A DNA stretch of 64,000 bases from Misgurnus anguillicaudatus. Its lineage: Eukaryota > Chordata > Actinopteri > Cypriniformes > Cobitidae. The position numbers and the translations under genes are program-made. Below, one piece after another: positions 1,524 through 64,000 of the stretch (position 1 is its first letter; every line of letters starts with the position of its first letter). The stretch is taken from NCBI RefSeq assembly GCF_027580225.2, contig NC_073358.2:9243501-9307500 (forward strand), in the 5' to 3' direction. The notes beneath the pieces are model-generated. The model did not search any database. It had not been told where the DNA came from and was given only the letters and a program-made list of their open reading frames with translations.

Positions 1524-16948
<15,425 letters not shown>

Positions 16949-17444: not shown

Positions 17445-19195
17445 CGTTTCAAATTTTATTTATATAGCGCTTTTCACAATAGTTAATTGTTTCAAAGCAG
17501 CTTTACATTAATAGATGTATGAAAAGCATAAAAAATGAGCATAGTAAAAATGTTATGTATACAGTAAAGTAGTAAGTTAAGCCAAAGGTGGCAAATTCTC
17601 CAGGGGATGAAAAAAAACCCTAGGAGAAAAACCCTCTTGGCTAGTCCAGGGGGAAAACTCCTAGGAGGGGAAAAACCCTTGAGAGAGATACATATATATT
17701 TATATACATATAAATACTATCGGGGTATGAGGACGGGTAAGCGAATTAAAATGGTTCGCCAGTGGTCGCTGGTCAGGCATCGGCTGGGCATCTCGTAGAA
17801 GGACGGTCAGTAGATCAACGGTGTTATGACCTTCATGGTTGCAGAAACTGGGTCTGTTTGTCTCATTGTCCCCAGGGTCAAGGACGAGACAGGGAAAGAG
17901 AAACAGAATCCTATTAGCGTAGGGGCTGTTCACATGTAAGGCAAGTGTCATACAGTATAGTGGTTTAAGTCAGCTCGGTTCTAGACAGGCTAACTATTGC
18001 AGCATAAGTATATTACCCAATATGAGGTATGTGAGTGCTTTGTTCTAGACAAACTAACTATTGCGGGATAAGTGCATTTACTGGACATTTTATGTGAATG
18101 CTTTGTTAAAGAAGAATGTCTTAAGTTTAGTTTTAAATTGATCGACTGTGTCTGATACTTGAACATTATTTGGTAAATCATTCCAGAGCTTAGGGGCTAA
18201 GTTGGAAAAGGATCTACCAACTTTAGATACTTTTGATATTCTAGGGATAATTCAGTGGCCAGAATTTTGTGATCGCAGTTTACGTGATGGATTGTATTCT
18301 GACAGTAATTCTTTAATAAACGAGGGTGCTAGGCCATTTAAGACCTTGTATGTGATTAGTAATATTTTAAATTGTATGCGATATGTAACTGGCAACCAGT
18401 GTAAAGATGCCAGAATTGGACTTATGTGGTCATACTTTTTTGATCTAGTAAGCACTCTTGCGGCGGCATTTTGAACCAGCTGTAACTTGTTTACCTGATT
18501 TGCGTGACATCCCCCGAGTAACAAATTACAATAGTCTATTCTAGAGGTCATAAAAGCGTGGATAAGCTTTTCTGCATCTGATGCAGACAGCATATGGCGT
18601 ATTTTCGAGATATTTCTAAGATGGAAGAATGCTGTGGAACATCACGCCTAAGTTCTTAACAGTGGATGGCACCACCGTGCAGCCATCTATGGCCAACTTG
18701 TAATCTGACATATTATGTTTGGAGCGGTTTGGTTCAATAATAAGTATCTCTGTCTTATTGGAGTTTAGCATAAGAAAGTTATGTGCCATCCAGTCCCTAA
18801 TATCACTAATGCAGTCTGTTAGCTTAGAAAACTGGTGGGTTTCGCTAGGATGTGACGAGATGTAAAGCTGGGTATCATCCGCATAGCAGTGAAAACTTAT
18901 GTTATGTTTCCTGATAATGTCTCCTAAAGGTAACATATATAACAAGAATAGGATAGGGCCTAAAATTGATCCCTGTGGTACGCCATATTTAACCGGGAAG
19001 TGATATGACTCTTCCTCATTTACATAAATCAAAGTGATATCGATTGGTTAGATACAATCTAAACCAGGCTAACGCCTGAATACTGATGCCAACATAGTTT
19101 TCTAGTCTATTAAGTAAGATTCTGTGATCAATTGTGTCAAAGCCTGCACTAAGGTCTAGTAATATAATGAGATTTCACCACGATCGGATGTTAAA
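17445..19195 (-). mobile_element. 5'-truncated L2-like LINE (reverse transcriptase fragment)
   Basis: On the minus strand the sequence encodes reverse transcriptase motifs: FDTIDHRILL (about 19130), [16 protein letters not shown] (about 18975) and the catalytic YADDTQLY (about 18880). Then comes a C-terminal part (SRIDYCNLLL, VQNAAARVLT, LHWLPVTYRIQFK, 18593-18252). Frames break at about 18600 and 19030. The 3' tail ends near 17450 with the element's AAATTTGAAA end. It is dead, and typical of CR1/L2-clade fish LINEs. Confidence 0.8.
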
Positions 19196-25575: not shown

Positions 25576-28455
25576 ATGGACAAGCGTTTGGTCGATCCAC
25601 CGGATGGTGGCTACGGTTGGGTTGTGGTCACCTCTGCCTTCTTTATTATGGGCTTTACCGCTGCTGTCCTGAAGAACTTCGGCCTGTTCTTCCTCGACAT
25701 CCAAAGACACTACAGCGTTTGTGCCAGCACTACTTCATGGGTGACCTCAACCACTATTGCAGTGTTTCATTTGGGAGGTGATAAGATCCCTTTTAAAATT
25801 ATCTTAAAATGGACTTCCTGTGTTTTGGTGATGTCATGCTTTGCTGTTTAGCTCCTCTGGCTAGTGCTCTCAGTATGCACCTGTCACAGCGGACAGTCAT
25901 CATGATTGGAGGGATCCTGGCTACTTCAGGGATGGTTCTTGCTTCTTTGGACCTCAGCCTGCCATGGATGTATGTGTCTATGGGTGTGCTTCAAGGTAGG
26001 CTTGTTGGTTTGAATAATGTTGGCATTTTAGTATGTTTTTATTCACTGATTTAAAGATATTATGTCAAATCCCTTTAAGCATTCTAAACATCTTTTGGAT
26101 TTATAATTGAGCAGCTCAGATGCAAAAGCTGCTAATGATAATAATGACTGAATGCTTTTGGAAAATCTGCTTAATCCCATCCTCTGGCCATTCAGAAATA
26201 CTGCTTTGTTGCCAGAATGCGCCATTTTTCAGCAAAGTCCTCTAATGATGATTTCTCTCCCATGTTGTGATCTAGGGCTTGGTATCTCATTATGCTGGAT
26301 ACCAGCAAACAGCATGGTCAGCCATTATTTCAAACACTGGCGTCCAGTCGCCTATGCGGTCGCAAGCTCTGGAGAGTGCGTGTTCGCCATGATCTTCAGT
26401 CCGCTCTTCCAGTGGCTCATCGAGATCTATTCGTGGCAGGGGGCCGTTCTTATTATTGGAGGTCTGCAGCTGAATCTGTGTGCTTGTGGTGCTTTGATGC
26501 GACCCCTTCCACCAAACTCAGTCATGCAAAACTCTTTGCAAGACAAACTGTTGTCGGACTCCAAAGATCAAACAAAACCACCAGTCACTTTCCAGTGGTC
26601 TTTGATTCAGAGGCCCGAGCTGCTGCTATACATCGTGTTTGCCATCTTGGCTGCAGCTAGTTTCTTCATCCCCCCTTTGTTTTTGGTACCCTATGCCAAC
26701 AGCCGGGGTATGGAGCAGTACTGGGCCGCCTCCATCCTGTCAGTGCTTGCGTGTGCAGACCTGCTGGGTAGACTTATGTGCGGATGGCTGGCGACCCTGC
26801 GGCTCGTGAGGAACCTGCAGCTGTTGACCGTGGTAGTAACGACTGGAGGGGTGGTGCTACTTCTGTTTCCCATTGCAGAAAGTTACTGGGGCATTGTGGT
26901 CTTCTCCTCGCTTTACGGTTTCTTGTTCGGCTGTGTGGTGGCCATCCACGTGACAAGTATTGTGGATATTGTTGGACTGGAGGGGTTTGACAGCGCCCTA
27001 GGGCTCTTCATGCTGTTACGAAGCTCTGGAGGATTTGTGGGACCACCTGCTGCAGGTGAAAGTTACATTCTTCTATAGATTTCATGTTTAAGGTGATTTT
27101 TGCTATCTTCAGCCAAATAGTTCCGGTTCATCCCTACCTTTTTACTTTGCAAATCATATAAAAGTAAATATTTTATATAAATGAAATCAAACATTTGAAT
27201 CAATTAGTTCACAATGTGATACATTTTGGCTGTTAACTATAGTTCAAAAGCAGTGTTGGAGGTAACGCATAACTACTCTGAAGTACAAGTAAAGTAACGC
27301 ATTACTTTATAAATGTAGACATTAATATTTTAGTTACTTTTAAAAATAGTAATTAGAGTTTCAGCTTAAATGCAGGATAGGCAGGAATTATCTAAAAAAA
27401 ACTTTTTTACAAATTTGTTTAAACTGTCTTTATATACCAATACGTAATTAAATTGTAAGTACTCTGAAAAAGAGAGTATAAAACTCGAGTGTCTGTAGAC
27501 CTCTCACCACTGTTTTAAACACAGCCAATTATTTCCATTCGGGACGAAACAAATGATTGGCTTGCGCGACTATAACTCTCTCGTGCGACCATGGCACCAC
27601 CCCTGTTGCTATGGGATCTGCCCACACATGCGCACACCTGATTGATTTGAACGTGCACGAGACACTCTAGAAGGAGCAAAAGAATGGCAGAGAAAGTGCA
27701 TTCAGAACTCACAGTACCTGCATATCCAGTCAGCAAAGGCAAACGCGGCAAAACAAGGAATAAACGAAGAAATCAAACGAGATTAAATACACTCGATTTT
27801 TATACTCTCTTTTTCATAGTACTTACATTTTACTTATGTATTGGTATATAAAGACAGTTTAAACAAATTTGTAAAAAAGTATATATAATGTACTTAATTA
27901 AACTAAATGTAGAATTACGCACTTTCATACGTGCGGCCTGAGCGGAAACAATTTGCATCAGAAAAGGAGATGACAGGCCAGAGCTTGAAATTTTTGCAAT
28001 GGAAATATGCGGTTTCTGAATGCAGAACTTCTCAGTCATAAAAAACACAAGAGATCAAGTCTCAGCCATGTAAGAAAAAGTTACGCAAAAGTAACTTAAA
28101 AGTAACATAAGTATTATTTTCCATAAAAAGTAACTAAGTAATGTAAATTAGTTCCTTTTTGGGAGTAACTTAATATTGTAATGCATTACTTTTAAAAGTA
28201 ACTTTCCCCAACACTGTTTGAAAGTTACAAAATATATCATAGTTATATAGTAAATCTTTATAGTATATAATATTGTAAAAGTATTGTGTGTTGCCCATCT
28301 CTTTTAACTCTTTCCTCGCACATTACAAGTTATTTTGTCAAATAATGAGTCCTTCCAGAAAAACGCAGTTTTTTGTGATTGTTGCGGGGAAAAATCCTTG
28401 ATCTTGCGGCACGTTTTCTTAAACAATGCGATAGAATGTGCTGGATAAATTTATA

Positions 28456-31500: not shown

Positions 31501-31783
31501 AGCTTAGTTTCTCAAATAGCGATGAGGCTCTGGTGTCTCTCTATCTCTGTGTTACAGGACACTGGTTTCATGTTTCTTTTGTATTACAGGCTGGCTGGTG
31601 GACTGGACCAATGACTTCAGCGCAGGTTTCTATTTGTCTGGCATCTGTCTCGTCCTCTCCAGTGTATTCGTGGTGTTTGTTGACAGACTGGTGCAGAAGA
31701 AAAAACTCTTTGTCAAACAAGCAGGTTTATATACTGACACCACAGATAATTTAAACAACAAAGCAAACCATACAGATGCATAA
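25576..31783 (+). CDS. SLC16 monocarboxylate-transporter-like protein (4 coding exons)
   Basis: Coding exons 25576-25777, 25852-25995, 26276-27055 and 31590-31783 join in phase (1320 nt, 439 residues plus TAA). The product is a 12-helix major-facilitator carrier. It has the MCT signature PPDGGYGWVVV before helix 1, the second family motif SHYFKHWRPVAYAVASSG near helix 5, and a helix 8 Asp/Arg pair in ADLLGRL; a long, poorly conserved loop separates the two halves. The start was set at the Met just after the acceptor at 25547; an in-frame upstream ATG at 25537 lies before that acceptor and is intronic. Introns 1 (74 bp) and 2 are short; intron 3 is 4.5 kb and repeat-filled. Family membership is clear. 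Subtype and substrate (lactate, creatine, ketone bodies or other) cannot be fixed by eye, so no symbol is given. Confidence 0.92.
27251..28216. repeat. Long fold-back element in SLC16 intron 3
   Basis: Ends CAGTGTTGGAGGTAACGCAT and AAAGTAACTTTCCCCAACACTG are inverted, with CAG/CTG tips as in hAT elements. Flanks TTCAAAAG and TTTGAAAG match at 6 of 8 positions. A second inner inverted pair (about 27400-27480 and 27795-27880) carries AAACTGTCTTTATATACCAA and its complement. Confidence 0.7.
28458..28543. repeat. (AT)n microsatellite, about 85 bp
   Basis: Uninterrupted AT dinucleotides for about 42 units in SLC16 intron 3. It is self-complementary and likely polymorphic. Confidence 0.97.
28544..30483. 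other. SLC16 intron 3, repeat-derived, no exon seen
   Basis: It includes a fish repeat around 28910-29270 (ACACCAAAACATTTAAACGC ... AAGCTTTGGTGTGCATA, inverted ends) and GC-richer repeat sequence at 30230-30480. No protein similarity is recognised. Confidence 0.45.
30484..30896. mobile_element. MITE, GGCCCTGTCCCAA family, copy 3
   Basis: The inverted ends match copies 1 and 2, and it is flanked by AAT on both sides. It is inserted into SLC16 intron 3. Confidence 0.8.
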
Positions 31784-32165: not shown

Positions 32166-32171
32166 AATAAA
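32166..32171 (+). promoter_or_regulatory. Possible polyadenylation signal of the SLC16-like gene
   Basis: AATAAA sits 382 nt after the SLC16 stop codon. If it is used, the hairpin at 32.7-33.1 kb is outside the main transcript. The region is AT-rich, so the motif could occur by chance. Confidence 0.3.
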
Positions 32172-32374
32172 AATAGTTTTATTCACTCGTGCCACTTCAA
32201 ACATGATTTAATTTTTATGTGCTAAACGCATATGAGCTGTTTTTTGTTCGTACAGTGGAATGGAGCGAGGATCATAACATAAATGATGTCATCATGACTG
32301 AAGAACCAATGAGGTCACTGTGTTATCATATTTGATTAGCTCTGTATATATGAGATGCTCTATACACTGCAAAA

Positions 32375-32629
32375 AATTTTACTTGAATTAAGTGTTTAAG
32401 AAAAAAGAAATCTTATTTCACAATTTTTTTTCTCACCCCATTGGCAGATAATTTTGCTTGTTTTAAGGACAATTTCACTTAAATTGTATATTATTTGTCT
32501 TAAAACTAGACTTATTTACTTAGGTCATTTTGCTCATCAAGAAAAAGCATCTTAATTTAAGAATTTTTAGATATTTCTACTGAAAACAAGACAAAAATAC
32601 TAAGTAAGAAAGTCATTTTTTGCAGTGTA
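32375..32629 (+). repeat. CACTGCAAAAAA-end MITE, unmodified copy
   Basis: A complete element of about 255 bp with ends CACTGCAAAAAA and TTTTTTGCAGTG. It serves as the local reference for the hairpin at 32671-33121, to which it aligns without gaps at an offset of 493 bp. Confidence 0.8.
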
Positions 32630-32670
32630 ATATAATTTAAATCTAAAATTTCAGAATTTGTTAATCATAC

Positions 32671-33121
32671 ACCGCAAAAAATTACATTTTTACTTGGTAT
32701 TTTTGTCTTGTTTTCAGTAGAAGTGTCAAAAGATTCTTAAATCAAGATGTATTTTCTTGATGAGCAAAATGACCTAAGAAAGTGATACTGGTTTTTGGAC
32801 AAAGAATATACAATTTGGGTGAATATGTGCTTGGAACGGGCAAAGGTATCTGCCAATGGAGTGAGAAATTTTTACTTGAATTAAGTGTTTAAGAAAAAAG
32901 AAATCTTATTTCACAATTTTTTTTCTCACCCCATTGGCAGATGATTTTGCTTGTTTTGGGGACAATTTCACTTGGATTGTATATTGTTTGTCTTGAAACT
33001 GGACTTGTTTACTTGCGTCATTTTGCTCATCAAGAAAAAGCATCTTGATTTGGGAATTTTTAGATATTTCTGCTGAAAACAGGACAGGGATCCTAGGTGA
33101 GAGGGTCATTTTTTGCAGTGT
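32671..33121. repeat. Inverted pair of the CACTGCAAAAAA MITE forming a hairpin, A-to-G enriched
   Basis: A reversed arm (32671-32866) is followed by a forward copy (32867-33121). The stem pairs 32671-32866 with about 32928-33121, leaving a loop of about 60 nt. Compared with the neighbouring copy at 32375-32629, the forward arm has 22 A-to-G changes, all after the loop; the reversed arm has about 15, on the same DNA strand. Confidence 0.8.
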
Positions 33122-33239
33122 ACAAAGTGATTGTATTGCATCAGCAGACTTCTACACACCAGTATTGAACCTTTAAGGAAAGTATTAATACTCCTATCTA
33201 AAAAGTCCTATCTACTTATAATTGTCTCATTGGAATTGT

Positions 33240-33564
33240 TTGACCTCGTCGTGATGATTTCAGATCACCACAATGATTGCACATCTCTCTAAAAAACACA
33301 AGGGGGAGCTGCAGCACATATATAAACGACACAGTATCAGATTACTTTTAAAAATGTGTTATGTGTATAAATATTTACTGCCAGATAAACCTTGCAAAAG
33401 ATTTTTTTTAAATCACAACAATCTGTGAAAAGTATTTCTTAAACAAAAAGTAATGTATGAGAATTAAATGTCAAAGCAATAAACAGCCAATTAATCGTCA
33501 TAATCTTAACACTTTATTAAACAATTAACTGTCAGACAAATGTCATAATCGTGACAACCCTAAT
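33240..33564 (-). repeat. Reverse-orientation copy of the 2538-2870 MITE
   Basis: It contains AAAACACAAGGGGGAGCTGC and ends ATAATCGTGACAACCCTA, the inverted counterpart of the element in the jak2 intron. Confidence 0.6.
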
Positions 33565-34654
33565 CTAATTGAGTAGTAAAAACTGATATAAAACCAAATA
33601 TTTCCAATAAACAATTAAAGCTGGCATCAACTGTACCATACATTTACCATGCAAGTTTATAGTGGCTATATTGAGCATTGCATTTTAGTATTTGAATATA
33701 CCAACTGATTTACTACTGGATGTCTTATGTCCTGTTTGGATCAGAAAATCTAATAATGAGTTGAAAATTACATCATGATTAGATACAGGTTTGTCATTTA
33801 TTGGGTCACCCGTCCCTTTAAGAATGTGACCTCATTGTTGCCATATTTTAAAGCCCTAACCTATTGACAAACTAAAACTCAGACATGACATTCTGAGATC
33901 CTCTTCCTGTTCTTGAACGGGTTACATGAAATTAGCATCAACAGGCATAATCATGTATAGACAAAAATTCAGGGAATGTACAGTGTATGAAAGCAATATG
34001 TTTAATCTTGTTTTTCTGTTTCTATATGTGAAAGGTGAAAACGAACAATTGTTTTATTTTACTTAATTTGTATCAGCTAATTTAGTCAGGTTGATTTACC
34101 TCTGCGGGCACACTGCCAGCGACTTTGTCGCTGCACTGTAAAAAGTGAAAGTTGGGTTAGCTTAAAAAATTACTTCAATTGGTAACACCTAAAAGGTTAA
34201 ACCGTTAAAGTTTTAGGTTAAAAAAGCTTACAATATTAGTTTTTTTTAGGTTTATAACTAATGAGATCATCTGTAGCCACTGGGTGTCAGTATGACTCCA
34301 GAAAGAGTTGATCTTCAGTCATACAATACAAATACAGTACACTACCACACCAGTTTATTTTTATTTCTACTTTTTTGGAATAATAGTTAAGTCATCTTGA
34401 AAATTATGTAGTGACCAAATGAATGCTAAAATGTCCTGCTTCAAAGTTTCAATACTTTTCTAGGTTACAACTCTCAACATTGTTGACATTTTCTCTGTCA
34501 CATGAAGTGCCACTTGGATAAGGCAATACTGATGCAGAAATTCAGTCAACATGTCTATACATTTGATTTGTAGTGTATGGTTTTTCATTTGACATGTACA
34601 TAATAACATTTAATAAAAAAAATGTGTCTGTGACAAATTAACACTTAAAGGGAC
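33565..34654. other. Intergenic AT-rich sequence, no gene seen
   Basis: No coding signal or long repeat structure is recognised beyond short AT-rich tracts. Confidence 0.4.
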
Positions 34655-37149: not shown

Positions 37150-40100
37150 TCACAGGATCATAATGAACAGAACACTCAGGAATGGAAACACAGCGATATA
37201 TGAAGAACAGAGAAATCCGACTGACTTAAAACTTTGTAGCTCTACACAAACAACAACACATGCAGTGGTGAGTTGTGTAAAGGCCCAGCTTAGACACACA
37301 TATAACCGCTTCCTCCACGGGGAGGTAAGCTTCGGTTTCAGGAAGCGATGTAACTTGTAGTCACCATGCACGGTGGCGGCCCACATGAGAAAACCCAGAA
37401 TCTGACCAGGATGAAGTCCGTGCCACCAAGCCGAGAACCCAAAAGTCACGAGGAGCGGAGATGTGTTGCACCTTTGGAAGATTATTCTCCGAAGCCACGC
37501 CGCTGTGGTTCTGTTCCACTCACGAGCAAACACTGAAGGTTGACTCGACAATTCAGTCAGCCATGGGTTGCCGTCAGACATCCCATCCCATGATGGTTTT
37601 CCGGTGTGACGGTAACTACGGAGACCGAAGCCTGCGGCATTGTTAACGCACTCGCTTACTTTCCAGTGTGCATAATAGTTCATTTTCAGTAGCAGGGCCA
37701 AGATCCAGATCCCTAATATCTCTCCTGTGTTGGATTTCAGGAGCATATGTAGAGCATATTTAATCAAAACTAAAACTAAAACTTGCAATGTTTTCGATGC
37801 AAGATTACCTAGACAGGACGCTAAGGGTGGAGTCTGGCTCATTCGCCTTACTGACTCCACAAATGTGTTGAAATCACAAAGCGGTCCTCCGAGGAGAGAT
37901 GGAAAATAAAGAAAGTAGCTCAGAAATAAAACGAAGATCCCTGAATGGTGATCAATGCCGACTGACCCCTTCTGAAGATCCAGAGATAGAGAAGAAACCC
38001 TCTGTGTCATCAACATCAGAGCAGACACTGCCAATAAAAGCCTGTATGTGATAAAGCAGAAGAATTCAGATGGCAGATTTTACCGTGACATTTTCGTATA
38101 GATTTTTTTTTAAATCAAACCTGGAGTCAGGTGTCTCTTGCAGCCAGTATTGCTGGTACTGTATGCACAAATGCCAAAACGTTTGCCAGCACATCTGCAG
38201 TCCTAAAGTCCACCGATAAATTTGCGTTGGGTCCAAAAATCGAATCAGCAGAAGGGAAAAACCAGCACTGATAAACAGCAGAACGCTGTATGGACCCATC
38301 GTCAAAGCACCCAGGAGGAAGCCACCCAGGGCCAAATAGATAAACCTTTCAGGATGAGATGCATGTCAGAAATTTTATTTTACAAAGTGTCATGGTAAGA
38401 GGGCAACATCTTTTAAAATAGCATAAGCGACAGCATGCATTCTTAGATCACACAGAACGCGTTTATGGCAGTGACAGGCGTCATTTTTGAATGATTTTCT
38501 ATGAGGGTTAAGTGTGATGTTTATCCGCACCGAACGTCTTGCGTTTTTACACTGGTCTTTTTTAAAGTGATGAAAAAAGGTGGGCATTTAAGTGCCTCTC
38601 CTCTCTTTCGATTGGACAATGGAAAAACACAAATGACGTCGGGCGCTTTTCCGCTTTGAGTGCTCCTTCAAAAACGAGTGTCGCGACAGGCAGAAAAAAC
38701 TGCATAAACAGCGTGTATACCGCTCACTGCCCGTAGAAAATCATTTACAAAAGGCGTCTGCAACCATAGATATGTATAATAAAGGCTAGATGTCTTACGG
38801 CGGGATCTCTAACGTCATCACCTGACGGCCATCTTACCACAGGGAAGCTCGCTCACTCGTAGCATTGAGTTTTAATGGTGCATGTACTTTTAAATGACCA
38901 TAACTTGCTCAATTTTCTACCGATTTTCAAATGGTTTGGTTTCTTATAAATATTATTAACATGGCTATAATTCTTCATTTTTCATGTTTCTTCGTGTTAC
39001 AATCTTTGACGTTTATAACAAACCATTTAAAAATCAGTAGAAAATTGAGCAAGTTATAGGGCCCTATTTTAACGATCTAAGCGCATCGTAAACACACAGC
39101 ACAACGTCTAAATGGGCGTGTCCGAATCCACTTTTGCTAGTTTAACGACGGGAAAAATGGTTTGTGCGCCGAGCGCATGGTCGAAAAGTGTAGTTTTTTT
39201 TTTTTTAATGAGTAATGGGAGTATTTTGGGCGTAACGTGCAATAAACCAATGAGGGTCTCAGCTCTCATCCCCTTTAAAAGCCAGTTGCACTGGCGCTAT
39301 GTCTAATCTCTATTTAGATGACGGACTTTGTAAACTGAAAAACTAAGCGGAGGAACAAGATCCCCAGTTTAAGATTAATATTAAATAATTGTGTTGATTT
39401 TCACGTGTATTGAAATTGTTATTTTTTATTAAAACCTTTAAAACCCGTTTTCTTCTAGTCATGGAAGTAAAAAAGCAGGCTTTTAATTGCTTTAAATGTA
39501 TGGCTATCCAATATCATAAAAAATTATTTACAAGTATGTTAGATACTGTAAAAATACTTTATTTGTAACAAACAGGAGATAAAGAATTTACAAACGGCTC
39601 TCCGCACCTTTCAGCACTTGGACAGCGTCAGTTTTTTTTAAGCATTACTTAAAAATGTTTCTCATCTCACCATATCCACAGGTACAGAGTCATCATATAC
39701 AATAAATCGGCGAGGTAGCATTAAAAATTTTTTTTAAAAACAGATGCATTTGTTTAAAGCAAAGCATTTATTTACTTACCAGGCTGCAGATGAAGCAGCT
39801 CTTTGTGCCTTTTAACGTCTTATAATCGGTCCTCATTTATGTCCAAGAGACTCAATAATAATCTTTTACATTCAATCCTTTAATCTTTCATTTTAAAAGC
39901 ATTTTTGTGCAGCTGCACATTTATGTGTGTGATAAGCAAACCTGCGTTGTCGTTCCATTTATGGAGGCATATTACTAATGCGCTCTTTAAATAGCAAAAA
40001 ACATATTGCGCCATTGACTTTAGACTTTAGAGCAGGTTTTTGTTGGTCAATGGCGTAGTCTATTTTAGTTGCCTCAAAATAGCAACGCGCCAACAATGCG

Positions 40101-41489
40101 CCTGAACACACCTCATTTTTACATCAGAACGCCCATGGGCGCAAAAATGGGCGCAAATGCATTTGCTATTTAAACAACGTGGCGCTTTGGCAATTGTCAT
40201 TTTTGGCAAGAAAAATAAAAACATGCACTTTTAAACCACAACTTCTCTTCTTCCTCCGGCTGTGTGACGCGCCAGCACGACCTCACGTAATTGCGTAATG
40301 ACGTAGAAAGTTCACGTGTTACATATATAAAACTTACTTTTGCAGACCATTTTAAACAATAAACTGACACAAAGACATTAATTGGTATCATTCGACATAC
40401 AACAATGTTGAAGTGGTCCTCTTTCTCCACACTTGTAAACACTGGAACGTAGTTTCACATTCGTCATCCGTGACCTCTTGACGTGATGACGTATTACATG
40501 AAGTTGCGCTGGTGGGTCGCACGACTGGAGGGGGACGGGAGGTTGTGGTTTAGGGGTGCATGTTTTTTGTTTTTCTTGCCACAGATGGCAGTCGTTTCGC
40601 TAGATAAGTCATTTAGAGTCCTTTAAAACTGCATTAAGACTGTTAAGTGTTGGGGTCCATTAAAGTTCATTAAAATTAGAAAAATCCTGGAATGTTTTCC
40701 TCAAAAAACAAAAGACATAAATTAGTATCATTCCACATACTGTACAACAACGTCGGAACGGTCCTCTTTCTCCACACTTGTAACACTGGGGCGTGAGGTC
40801 GCGCTGGCACATCTCAGGACCGGAGATAGACGAGAAGTTGTGGTTTAAAAGTGCATATTTTTTATTTTTCTTGTCAAAAATGACAATCGTTTCGCTAGTC
40901 TAGATAAGACCCTTATGCCTCGTTTGGGATCGTTTAGAGTTCTTTGAAACTTCGTTAAAAAACTGTTAAGTGTTAGGTGTTGAGTTCCATTAAAGTCCAT
41001 TAAAATGATAAAAATCCTGGAATGTTTTCCTCAAAAAACACAATTTCTTCTCGACTGAACAAAGACAGACATCAGCATTTTGGATGAAATGGTGGTGAGT
41101 GGATGGTCTGGATTTTTTTTTTTGGGAAAATTGACTAATCCTTTAATTTTTTTTAAATTAACTATTATTTTTTATAGAATTAGCTCAACATTTTTAGGCT
41201 ACAAGGTAACTTACTTTTATAAGTTGAACCAACAAATTTTTAAAGTGTAATATTAAAGGTGCTTACAGTAAATCACAATTCTTTACATCGATTTTCCCCA
41301 AAAAACTATTCAGTCAGTAATAGGACTAGCACCTTTAATTTTAAAAGTGTGTCATATATACCTGTTTACTACTGAGAGACGTCCACTTCTAGCCAAATAA
41401 TACAACAGCAGAGCGAAAGGAATGTTCAGAAACTGGTAAAACAGCTGCAGGTTTCCATCCAAAAGTACCCAGAGAAGATCCATCGCCAT
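37150..41489 (-). CDS. mboat4: Ghrelin O-acyltransferase (MBOAT4), 3 exons
   Basis: Membrane-bound O-acyltransferase of the ER that attaches a medium-chain fatty acid to serine 3 of proghrelin. Exons on the minus strand: 41489-41362, 38345-38121 and 38041-37150; 1245 nt in phase, 414 residues plus TGA. The product opens MAMDLLWVLLDGN; a second in-frame Met follows two codons later. It is hydrophobic throughout. The MBOAT catalytic pair is visible: Asn in REWNRTTAAWL and His in FSAWWHGLHPG. TQRVSSLSLD and LLGGPLC match GOAT rather than other MBOATs, and the length fits fish orthologues. The splice sites are standard (AACAG/GTATAT; CTGAAAG acceptor; CCAG/GTTTG; CATACAG acceptor). Intron 1 is 3.0 kb of repeats. 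Confidence 0.94.
38897..39056. repeat. Inverted repeat in mboat4 intron 1
   Basis: ATAACTTGCTCAATTTTCTA (left) and TAGAAAATTGAGCAAGTTAT (right) are exact inverted complements about 110 bp apart. Confidence 0.7.
39058..40165. repeat. GGGCCCTATTTTAACGATCT repeat in mboat4 intron 1
   Basis: It begins GGGCCCTATTTTAACGATCT, a start I recognise as a common fish DNA-repeat family, with GCGC-rich motifs (AATGGGCGCAAATGC) near the far end. The complementary end is not visible, so it is probably truncated. Confidence 0.5.
40195..41145. repeat. F3 fold-back family, rearranged copy with extra arm
   Basis: A left arm (from about 40195), a right arm to about 40700 and a second right-arm copy (about 40730-41145) end in ATTGACTAATCCTTTAA. 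The first right arm at 40528-40595 carries an A-to-G cluster relative to the second (40826-40890). Confidence 0.7.
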
Positions 41490-42800: not shown

Positions 42801-42804
42801 CCTT

Positions 42805-43533
42805 TAAGGAATAGTCTACTCATTTTCAATATTAAAATATGTTATTACCTTAACTAAGAATTGTTGATACATCCCTCTATCATCTGTGTGCGTGCACGTA
42901 AGCGCTGGAGCGCGCTGCGACGCTTCGATAGCATTTAGCTTAGCCCCATTCATTCAATGGTACCATTTAGAGATAAAGTTAGAAGTGACCAAACACATCA
43001 ACGTTTTTCCTATTTAAAACGAGTAGTTATACGAGCAAGTTTGGTGGTACAAAATAAAACGTAGCGCTTTTCTAAGCGGATTTTAAAGAGGAACTATATT
43101 TTATGGCGTAATAGCACTTTTGGGAGTACTTCGACTCGCCTGAAAAGTCCGCTCCCCTTCTCACTCTCATAATGGGAGAGGGAGGGTGTTACTGCGCCGA
43201 GTCGAAGTACTCCCAAAAGTGCTATTACGCCATAAAATATAGTTCCTCTTTTAAATCCGCTTAGAAAAGCGCTATGTTTTATTTTGTACCACCAAACTTG
43301 CTCGTATAACTACTCATCTTAAATAGGAAAAACGTTGATGTGTTTGGTCACTTCTAACTTTATCTCTAAATGGTACCATTGAATGAATGGGGCTAAGCTA
43401 AATGCTATCGAAGCGTTGCAGCGCGCTCCAGCGCTTACGTGCACGCACACAGATGATAGAGGGATGTATCAACAATTCTTAGTTAAGGTAATAACATATT
43501 TTAATATTGAAAATGAGTAGACTATTCCTTTAA
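42805..43533. repeat. Long fold-back element, family F2, copy 2
   Basis: Same ends and arms as 14260-14987. The spacer (43139-43197) is the reverse complement of copy 1's spacer, so the element inserted in the opposite orientation. Both arms agree with each other and lack the A-to-G cluster. Confidence 0.8.
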
Positions 43534-44619: not shown

Positions 44620-45509
44620 AAAGAATTAGTCAGTTTTCTTAAAGGAAATCCAGATGGTTTGCTCGCCACCATGTCATCCGGGATGTTGATGTCTTTCTTT
44701 GTTCAGTCGAGAAGAAATTATGTTTTTTAAGGAAAACATTCCAGGATTTTTCTCATTTTAATGGACTCCAAAGGACGCCAACACTTAACACTTCACTAGA
44801 CTTAACATTTTTTTTAACGGAGTTTCAAAGGACTCTAAACGATCCCAAACGAGTCATAAGGGTCATATCTAGCGAAACGATTGTCATTTTTGACAAGAAC
44901 CACAACTTCTCGTCTATCTCCGGTCCTGTAATGTGCCAGCGTGACCTCACGCAATACGTCATCACGTCAAGAGGTCACGGAGGACGAATGCGAAACAACA
45001 CCCCAGTGTTTACAAGTGTAAAGAAAGAGAACCGTTCCGACTTTGTTGTATGTCGAATGATACAAATGAATGTCTTTGTGTCAGTTTATTGTTTAACATG
45101 ATCTGCAAATGTACATTTCATATATGTAAGGAGTGACCTTTCTACGTCACTACGCAATTACGTGAGGTCGCGCTAGCGCTTCACAGAACCGTAGATAGAC
45201 AAGAAGTTGTGGTTTAAAAGTGCATATTTTTTATTTTTCTTGTCAAAAATGACAATCGTTTCGCTAGATAATACCCTTATGCCTCGTTTGAGATCATTTA
45301 AAGTCCTTTGAAAAAAACTGTGTTGAGTTAAGTGTTCAGTGTTGGGTTCCATTAAAGTCCATTAAAATGAGTAAAAATCCTGGAATGTTTTCCTCCAAAA
45401 ACATAATTTCTTCTCGACTGAACAAAGAAAGACATCAACATTTTGGATGACATGGTGATGATTAAATTATCTGGATTTTGTTTTTTAAGAAAATTGACTA
45501 ATCCTTTAA
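44620..45509. repeat. F3 fold-back family, near-complete copy
   Basis: The left arm (GAATTAGTCAGTTTTCTTAA, CATGTCATCCGGGATG) and right arm (ACATCAACATTTTGGATGAC, AAATTGACTAATCCTTTAA) are inverted over about 890 bp. Confidence 0.75.
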
Positions 45510-45994
45510 ATGCAAATAAGCTACAGCACCTCACTCCCTTACCAACAGACAGTGAGTGCTTTCGGTTAAAAATACATTTGATTCCTGTAAATACAGTCTG
45601 AGACAATAGTATATTTAGCCGCATTAGTGCTACAGCTTGCCAACAAAATTAACCAGTCAGTCAGTGGCTGTGGGCGGGGCTTTATCAGTGTGACGTCACA
45701 TTAACAAGATACAAAACAGTATATCTAATGAGACTAATTTGGATAAAAAAAGAGAGGGTGGATTTTCATTTTCATTGTAGGGTTGTTGTGTTCACACAGT
45801 TAATACACATTTATTTCCAAACTGGAAAATTTGGAATTTAAATATGGATTTTGCATAATATGTGCCCTTTAATGGGTAATTTTACTCATAACCAGTACAA
45901 CAATAGCTTCGGTTACTAAAGTCATGCAGTTTTTTCAATATCTATTGCCTGATTTGGACTGTTGCATGAAATTAAACTAGAGCATTGGAAGAGC

Positions 45995-47337: not shown

Positions 47338-64000
<16,663 letters not shown>

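What the first reader, a model, noticed from the sequence alone, without database searches (positions are those of the whole stretch)
32671..33121. A hairpin with A-to-G hypermutation confined to its stem, ADAR-like, in genomic sequence
Seen: the forward arm (32867-33121) aligns without gaps to an adjacent complete copy (32375-32629). In the first about 70 bases, mostly the predicted loop, there are no differences. From 32943 onward there are about 24 differences, of which 22 are A in the reference and G here; none is G-to-A, C-to-T or T-to-C. All 22 changed A's follow T or A, none follows G or C. The reversed arm (32671-32866), compared with the complement of the same copy, has about 15 A-to-G against one G-to-A on the same strand, plus scattered other differences. 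Known: ADAR deaminates A in double-stranded RNA and disfavours a 5' G. Inference: the sequence records editing of a + strand RNA hairpin that returned to DNA (reverse transcription or RNA-templated repair), or RNA reads or a strand-specific base-calling bias entered the assembly.
Basis: partly seen in the sequence, partly recalled or inferred. Interest (0 to 1): 0.88.

Follow-up and report, generated by a model that had tools for sequence, protein, structure and literature searches.

The report
DNA hairpin bearing RNA-editing-like scars
Just downstream of a transporter gene, two facing copies of a small mobile element carry dozens of A-to-G changes on one strand only, the pattern left by the RNA-editing enzyme ADAR, which suggests that an edited RNA was copied back into the chromosome, although an assembly artefact cannot yet be excluded.

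Summary
Three copies of one short inverted-repeat element lie side by side: A (+, 32365-32629), R (-, 32668-32866), F (+, 32867-33122). F differs from A at 25 of 257 positions; 22 are A>G, none is T>C, G>A or C>T. R carries 15 A>G on the same strand among 33 differences. Of 53 mismatches in the R:F stem, 36 are G.U, 2 A.C, 15 other. In F, 22 of 47 stem adenines after A/T changed, 0 of 22 after G/C, and 0 of 15 A/T-preceded adenines in the loop. New here: the A>G strand is the sense strand of a monocarboxylate-transporter gene with stop codon at 31783; the three copies lie 0.6-1.3 kb downstream, possibly in its 3' UTR. Best reading (0.6): the sense transcript formed dsRNA, ADAR edited it, and the edited RNA was written back into DNA, probably in one or a few bursts. 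Editing and write-back are inferred. Against the simplest version: folding pairs R with A, which is unedited, rather than with F. Perhaps F is an edited copy of A, or A came later. Reads, other genome copies and orthologues were not reached, so RNA in the assembly remains possible.

The parts
32365..32629 (+). Copy A: complete short element with 13-nt terminal inverted repeats (CACTGCAAAAAAT at 32365-32377 and its complement at 32615-32627), TA on both sides; the reference copy, without the A>G changes of F
32630..32667 (.). AT-rich spacer between A and R (part of the loop of the A:R fold)
32668..32866 (-). Copy R (terminal repeat from 32670, TA before it): same element, opposite orientation, lacking its right part; 33 differences from A over 201 aligned positions, 15 of them A>G on the + strand (32696-32845)
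32867..33122 (+). Copy F: same element lacking its left terminal repeat; 22 A>G (32943-33104) among 25 differences from A
32869..32921 (+). 53-nt loop of the R:F hairpin, no A>G change
26152..27055 (+). Monocarboxylate-transporter (SLC16-type) exon; start taken from the open frame, not mapped; end at CAG|GTGAAA (a second in-frame GT after 27061 is possible)
31590..31783 (+). Last coding exon of the same gene (AG acceptor, stop codon); the three copies lie downstream on its sense strand
33478..33483 (+). AATAAA, candidate poly(A) signal beyond the hairpin (another at 33606; one at 32166 lies before the three copies)

Best explanation
Inverted copies of a small TIR element sit on the sense strand just downstream of a monocarboxylate-transporter gene. 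A transcript running through them folded into a near-perfect duplex of about 200 bp (inferred). ADAR deaminated many adenines in both arms, mainly those after U or A; inosine is copied as G (inferred from the pattern). The edited RNA was then copied into DNA at this locus by RNA-templated repair or reverse transcription (inferred), fixing about 37 A>G changes on the sense strand. F has 22 A>G but only 3 other differences from A, which points to one or a few bursts rather than slow accumulation. Two histories fit. (i) The edited duplex was A:R, and F is an edited cDNA copy of A that replaced the right part of R by template switching at short shared sequences (8 nt A6TT on the left; the 13-nt terminal repeat plus TA on the right); this explains why A is unedited and why F nearly equals A outside the edits. 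(ii) R:F was the edited duplex and A inserted later from the same young subfamily. I lean slightly to (i).
For: A>G 37 of 148 against T>C 2 of 148 on the + strand over both arms. Stem mismatches: 36 G.U, 2 A.C, 15 other (36 vs 2 p=5e-9). Paired As changed, by 5' base: T 17/33, A 16/66, C 1/23, G 0/20; by 3' base: G 11/22, A 17/68, T 4/35, C 2/17; the 34 changed As that are paired in the modelled fold all sit opposite U. This fits zebrafish editing (G depleted upstream, some enrichment downstream; PMC8096273, passages). F loop clean. Sense-strand fold -237.1 kcal/mol (z -25.6) against -163.5 (z -13.1) for the antisense. Sense direction of the gene ending at 31783. Zebrafish editing index is highest in ovary and testis (PMC8096273, passages), where a change could be inherited. 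RNA-templated break repair is described in a review (PMC12686478, abstract and passages).
Against: No reads, orthologue or other genomic copy seen. In a transcript with all three copies R pairs with A (185 pairs) rather than F (0 pairs), by about 13.5 kcal/mol, yet A shows no editing relative to F and R. R's polarity rests only on A and F, which share ancestry; R's 5' context alone is weak (14 of 59 As after A/T against 1 of 19 after G/C). 18 of R's 33 differences are not A>G. Paired versus unpaired A/T-preceded As over both arms is not significant (33/99 vs 3/21, p=0.12), and 3 of the 22 F sites are unpaired in the modelled fold. An AATAAA at 32166 lies before the three copies, so whether the mature 3' UTR reaches them is unknown. 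TIRs and 2-bp TA on both sides of R-F suit a DNA transposon rather than a LINE-type retro-insertion.
Confidence: 0.6

Rival explanations
1. Artefact: RNA-derived reads or transcript contigs (truly ADAR-edited RNA) entered the assembly through gap filling or polishing, so the genome itself has A at these sites.
For: Repeated, inverted sequence next to a gene is hard to assemble and is a natural ADAR target; a survey of genomic traces suggested that sequencing errors were integrated into reference genomes in many cases (PMC2873906, passages).
Against: No N or ambiguous base in the window (weak). R also carries 18 ordinary differences. The density (22 of 47) looks like one molecule, which read polishing would rarely select (inference). 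The stretch between the two coding exons is present, so the gene here is not a pasted transcript.
Confidence: 0.17
2. DNA-level strand-specific mutagenesis: the non-template strand formed a hairpin or stayed single-stranded and adenines were mutated by an error-prone polymerase (Pol eta, WA motif) or transcription-linked adenine damage.
For: The WA context and the sense-strand bias fit; strand-biased A-to-G at WA sites in liver cancer is discussed in PMC11817618 (passages), whose authors themselves ascribe it to ADAR and reverse transcription.
Against: 22 of 23 stem changes at A in F are A>G; Pol eta also gives many A>T and A>C (recalled; with an assumed A>G share of one half, p=6e-6). The F loop is clean although single-stranded DNA would expose it. 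ADAR acting on the DNA strand of an R-loop would hit the template strand and give T>C on the sense strand, the reverse of what is seen (inference).
Confidence: 0.12
3. Ordinary subfamily differences: F (or R-F) belongs to a subfamily whose consensus already has G, spread by transposition.
For: R-F has terminal repeats and TA at both ends and could be a mobile foldback unit; the family consensus could not be obtained.
Against: R matches A at 19 of 22 F sites; two arms carry different sites with the same strand direction; 0 T>C in F. Even a subfamily master would need an A>G-only burst.
Confidence: 0.08
4. Selection kept the RNA hairpin paired, allowing G.U-compatible substitutions.
For: G.U is the commonest mismatch in the stem (36 of 53).
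Against: C>T is equally G.U-compatible but occurs at 2 of 53 Cs against A>G at 37 of 148 As (p=4e-4); it gives no reason for the 5' context; 15 of 53 stem mismatches are neither G.U nor A.C.
Confidence: 0.03

Closest known systems
ADAR hyper-editing of repeats in animal transcripts (zebrafish editome, PMC8096273; Metazoa survey, PMC5625713; passages of both read)
   Same: Dense one-strand A>G clusters in duplex-forming repeats, 5' G avoided; 3' G favoured as in zebrafish
   Different: Here the changes are in the assembled genome sequence, not seen as an RNA-DNA difference
APOBEC DNA editing of retrotransposons (PMC2873906, passages; Carmi 2011, seen only as a reference)
   Same: Enzyme-made mutation clusters fixed in genomic repeats
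   Different: G>A clusters in retroelements; here A>G in a DNA-transposon-like element
Deaminase-driven reverse transcription model (PMC11817618 and PMC12941027, passages; Steele 2006 on mRNA hairpins seen only as a reference)
   Same: Proposes that A-to-I edits in RNA are written back into DNA as A-to-G, at WA sites
   Different: Argued from immunoglobulin and cancer mutations; here one non-immune locus with an unedited copy, a loop as internal control and a known gene orientation
Miniature inverted-repeat transposable elements with TA target sites (recalled)
   Same: Short, no long ORF, terminal inverted repeats, TA flanks
   Different: R and F are joined copies truncated at the junction; family not identified here

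Membership tests
ADAR hyper-editing substrate | A>G clusters on one strand only | tested here: met
   37 A>G vs 2 T>C over both arms; F 22 vs 0
ADAR hyper-editing substrate | Changes lie in long double-stranded RNA | tested here: met
   201-nt arms, sense fold z -25.6; 34 of 37 changed As paired in the modelled fold; F stem vs loop p=5e-4; but paired vs unpaired over both arms p=0.12
ADAR hyper-editing substrate | 5' G depleted, 3' G enriched | tested here: met
   5' G 0/20, C 1/23, A 16/66, T 17/33; 3' G 11/22, A 17/68, T 4/35, C 2/17
ADAR hyper-editing substrate | Strand is transcribed | tested here: inconclusive
   Sense strand, 0.6-1.3 kb past a stop codon; no RNA data
ADAR hyper-editing substrate | RNA differs from DNA at the sites | not testable with these tools
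   no RNA or DNA reads held
APOBEC DNA editing | G>A (or C>T) clusters | tested here: not met
   F: 0 G>A, 0 C>T; R: 1 and 2
TIR element / MITE | Terminal inverted repeats and target-site duplication | tested here: met
   CACTGCAAAAAAT at both ends of A; at the ends of R-F with 1 and 0 mismatches; TA flanks, only 2 bp so weak
TIR element / MITE | Many copies in the genome | not testable with these tools
   3 copies found in the window; the genome search not answered

The most novel reading that the evidence does not exclude
A single RNA-templated synthesis event in the germ line, using an ADAR-edited A:R hairpin transcript of a gene's 3' region and switching template at short homologies, both created a third element copy (F) and imprinted the edits of F and R into the chromosome, so that RNA editing became heritable DNA mutation.
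Probability: 0.3. Interest if true: 0.92.

Novelty: new variant of a known kind. Interest (0 to 1): 0.8.

Why it matters
Whether edited RNA can rewrite germline DNA in vertebrates is an old, disputed question (recalled). A locus holding an unedited copy, an edited copy, an edited partner arm, an unedited loop and a known gene orientation within 800 bp gives a clean test case, and a search rule (stem mismatches with many G.U and almost no A.C on the sense strand) that can be run on other genomes. If it is an artefact, it warns that RNA-derived sequence can sit in reference assemblies.

Tried and rejected
Chance and background: of 34 repeat pairs A/F stands alone at 0.88, next 0.48 (first version with a filter that dropped A/F). 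Other inverted repeats of the window, G.U against A.C mismatches (local or distant): 17 vs 11 between the foldback elements 14258-14990 and 42801-43533, 15 vs 32, 23 vs 27, 19 vs 7, 19 vs 7, 18 vs 8; short ones reach 6 vs 0, and TA/TG microsatellites 16 vs 1, so a G.U lean by itself is not unique; 36 vs 2 (36 vs 3 in the gapped alignment, where a palindrome counts each pair twice) is the strongest outside simple repeats. Structure-preserving selection was set aside because of the C>T deficit. Rfam at gathering thresholds: one match in the window, a tRNA elsewhere.

Looking for family relatives: three viral-contig scans gave 0 loci; one genome-contig scan gave 2 bacterial loci sharing at most 21 identical bases in a row, taken as chance; a protein search with the 51-aa translation of part of A found no candidate; DNA words of the element searched in papers gave 31 papers, 30 listed, none about this element by title, two on zebrafish holding one short word.

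Literature on genomic write-back of ADAR edits: searches (one search was for DNA words). Six of these nine lists were capped (25 of 67, 15 of 17, 15 of 39, 15 of 28, 12 of 15 and 10 of 16 shown). In the titles and abstract starts listed I saw no report of a stem-confined A>G cluster in a genomic inverted repeat; the library lacks most subscription journals. One search was a needless scan of 11 bases and is not used.

Full report
What is there. Copies of one short element lie in a row: A (+) 32365-32629, R (-) 32668-32866, F (+) 32867-33122. A has 13-nt terminal inverted repeats (CACTGCAAAAAAT) flanked by TA; the joined unit R-F also begins (one mismatch) and ends (no mismatch) in this repeat with TA outside. 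R lacks its right part and F lacks its left terminal repeat, so they meet at a truncated junction at about 32866-32869.

The changes. Over 257 gap-free positions F differs from A 25 times: 22 A>G, 1 A>T at the junction, 1 G>C, 1 A>C. No T>C, G>A or C>T occurs. On the same + strand R differs from the complement of A at 33 of 201 positions: 15 A>G, 1 G>A, 2 T>C, 2 C>T and 13 transversions. The R:F stem of 201 positions shows 53 mismatches: 36 G.U, 2 A.C and 15 others (36 vs 2, two-sided p=5e-9). Pooled, A>G hits 37 of 148 As and T>C 2 of 148 Ts (p=2.8e-10).

Place and context. In F, 22 of 47 stem As that follow A or T changed, 0 of 22 that follow G or C (p=4.5e-5), and 0 of 15 A/T-preceded As in the 53-nt loop (p=5e-4). 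For paired As of both arms the changed fraction by 5' base is T 17/33, A 16/66, C 1/23, G 0/20, and by 3' base G 11/22, A 17/68, T 4/35, C 2/17; 34 of the 37 changed As are paired in the modelled fold, all opposite U. Zebrafish editing sites show G depleted upstream and somewhat enriched downstream (PMC8096273, passages read); in a Metazoa survey upstream G depletion is shared by both motif groups (PMC5625713, passages). Less favourable: all paired against all unpaired A/T-preceded As over both arms gave 33/99 against 3/21, p=0.12, and R alone has 14 of 59 against 1 of 19 for As after A/T against after G/C.

Controls in the window. Of 34 repeat pairs with 15 or more differences (length 120 or more, 75-99.5% identity), A/F has its commonest directed transition at 0.88 of differences; the next highest is 0.48. 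A first version of this control used a low-complexity filter that had dropped A/F itself. The pairs overlap, and A/F is the only one in which a single dinucleotide exceeds a fifth of the sequence. G.U against A.C counts of other inverted repeats vary (17 vs 11, 15 vs 32, 19 vs 7, 18 vs 8; microsatellites up to 16 vs 1) but outside simple repeats none in the list nears 36 vs 2.

Gene context. A monocarboxylate-transporter exon ends at 27055 (CAG|GTGAAA; a second in-frame donor after 27061 is possible) and the last coding exon runs from 31590 (TTACAG|GCTGGC) to a stop at 31783, all on the + strand. The joined protein matches monocarboxylate transporter 2 structures (best 1.2e-45, aligned into the second exon), better than the first exon alone (best 9.8e-42). 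The three copies lie 0.6 to 1.3 kb past the stop, the R-F hairpin 0.9 to 1.3 kb. AATAAA occurs at 32166 before them and at 33478 and 33606 after them, so they could lie in an extended 3' UTR, which is not shown. On the other side an MBOAT-type acyltransferase frame on the - strand ends at 37150.

Which duplex. Folding the three copies together pairs R with A (185 pairs), not F (0 pairs), both for the present sequence and with the 37 changes set back; A:R plus free F is 13.5 kcal/mol better than R:F plus free A. A shows no editing: at only 1 of 201 positions does A differ from both F and R where these agree, and there A has A. Either A came later, or the edited duplex was A:R and F is an edited copy of A written into R. 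For the second: F and A differ at only 3 positions besides A>G, R differs from A at 18 such positions, and both junctions of F fall at sequences shared between A and the expected uninterrupted R, 8 nt (AAAAAATT) on the left and 13 nt of terminal repeat plus TA on the right (R's missing end was modelled from A, the TA was added by me, the left word is low-complexity, and the right homology is a property of any two copies of the element).

Mechanism and rivals. Shown: the strand-specific, context-dependent pattern, its confinement to the stem in F, and the gene orientation. Inferred: transcription through the repeat, ADAR action, and synthesis of DNA from edited RNA. RNA-templated repair and reverse-transcriptase activity of Pol zeta, eta and theta are discussed in a review (PMC12686478, abstract and passages). 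Editing of the DNA strand in an R-loop would be expected on the template strand and so give T>C on the sense strand, which is not seen (inference). Pol eta or adenine damage explain the WA context but neither the near-purity of A>G nor the clean loop. Selection for a paired RNA predicts C>T too, seen at 2 of 53 Cs (p=4e-4). An assembly built partly from RNA remains the main rival; the window has no N, but that is weak evidence.

Literature. The write-back of RNA edits has been proposed for immunoglobulin hypermutation and cancer (PMC11817618 passages; PMC12941027 passages; Steele 2006 seen only as a reference there). A survey of clustered mismatches in genomic traces treats A-to-G clusters in RNA traces as RNA editing and G-to-A clusters as DNA editing (PMC2873906 passages). 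In the nine literature listings (six of them capped) I saw no case like this one.

What could not be done: the genome search did not complete (11 attempts), no reads or other loci of the host were reached, and the species and the element family remain unnamed.

Noticed in passing
14257-14989 and 42801-43533: Two 733-bp nearly palindromic foldback elements, 95% alike, without a strong G.U excess (17 vs 11 between them); used as a comparison.
   Followed up: partly
33218-33568 and 2532-2849: An inverted pair of another repeat, one copy starting about 100 bp after the hairpin.
   Followed up: no
5322-5756 and 9843-10286: Tyrosine-kinase-like frames on the + strand (Pfam E 0.0022, below cut-off, and 8.7e-13; JAK-like by eye, recalled), with an HTH, transposase-like frame at 8969-9421 between them (weak matches below cut-off).
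   Followed up: no
18616-19047: Reverse transcriptase fragment (RVT_1, 64 bits) on the - strand, probably a LINE-type remnant.
   Followed up: no
37150-38079: MBOAT-type acyltransferase frame on the - strand, convergent with the transporter gene.
   Followed up: partly
40193-41146, 44620-45510, 62709-63766: Related repeats in several orientations; the local inverted pair 40195-40334 / 40451-40590 has 18 G.U against 8 A.C mismatches, a mild excess.
   Followed up: no
59027-59096: tRNA-like match on the - strand (Rfam tRNA, 35.1 bits).
   Followed up: no
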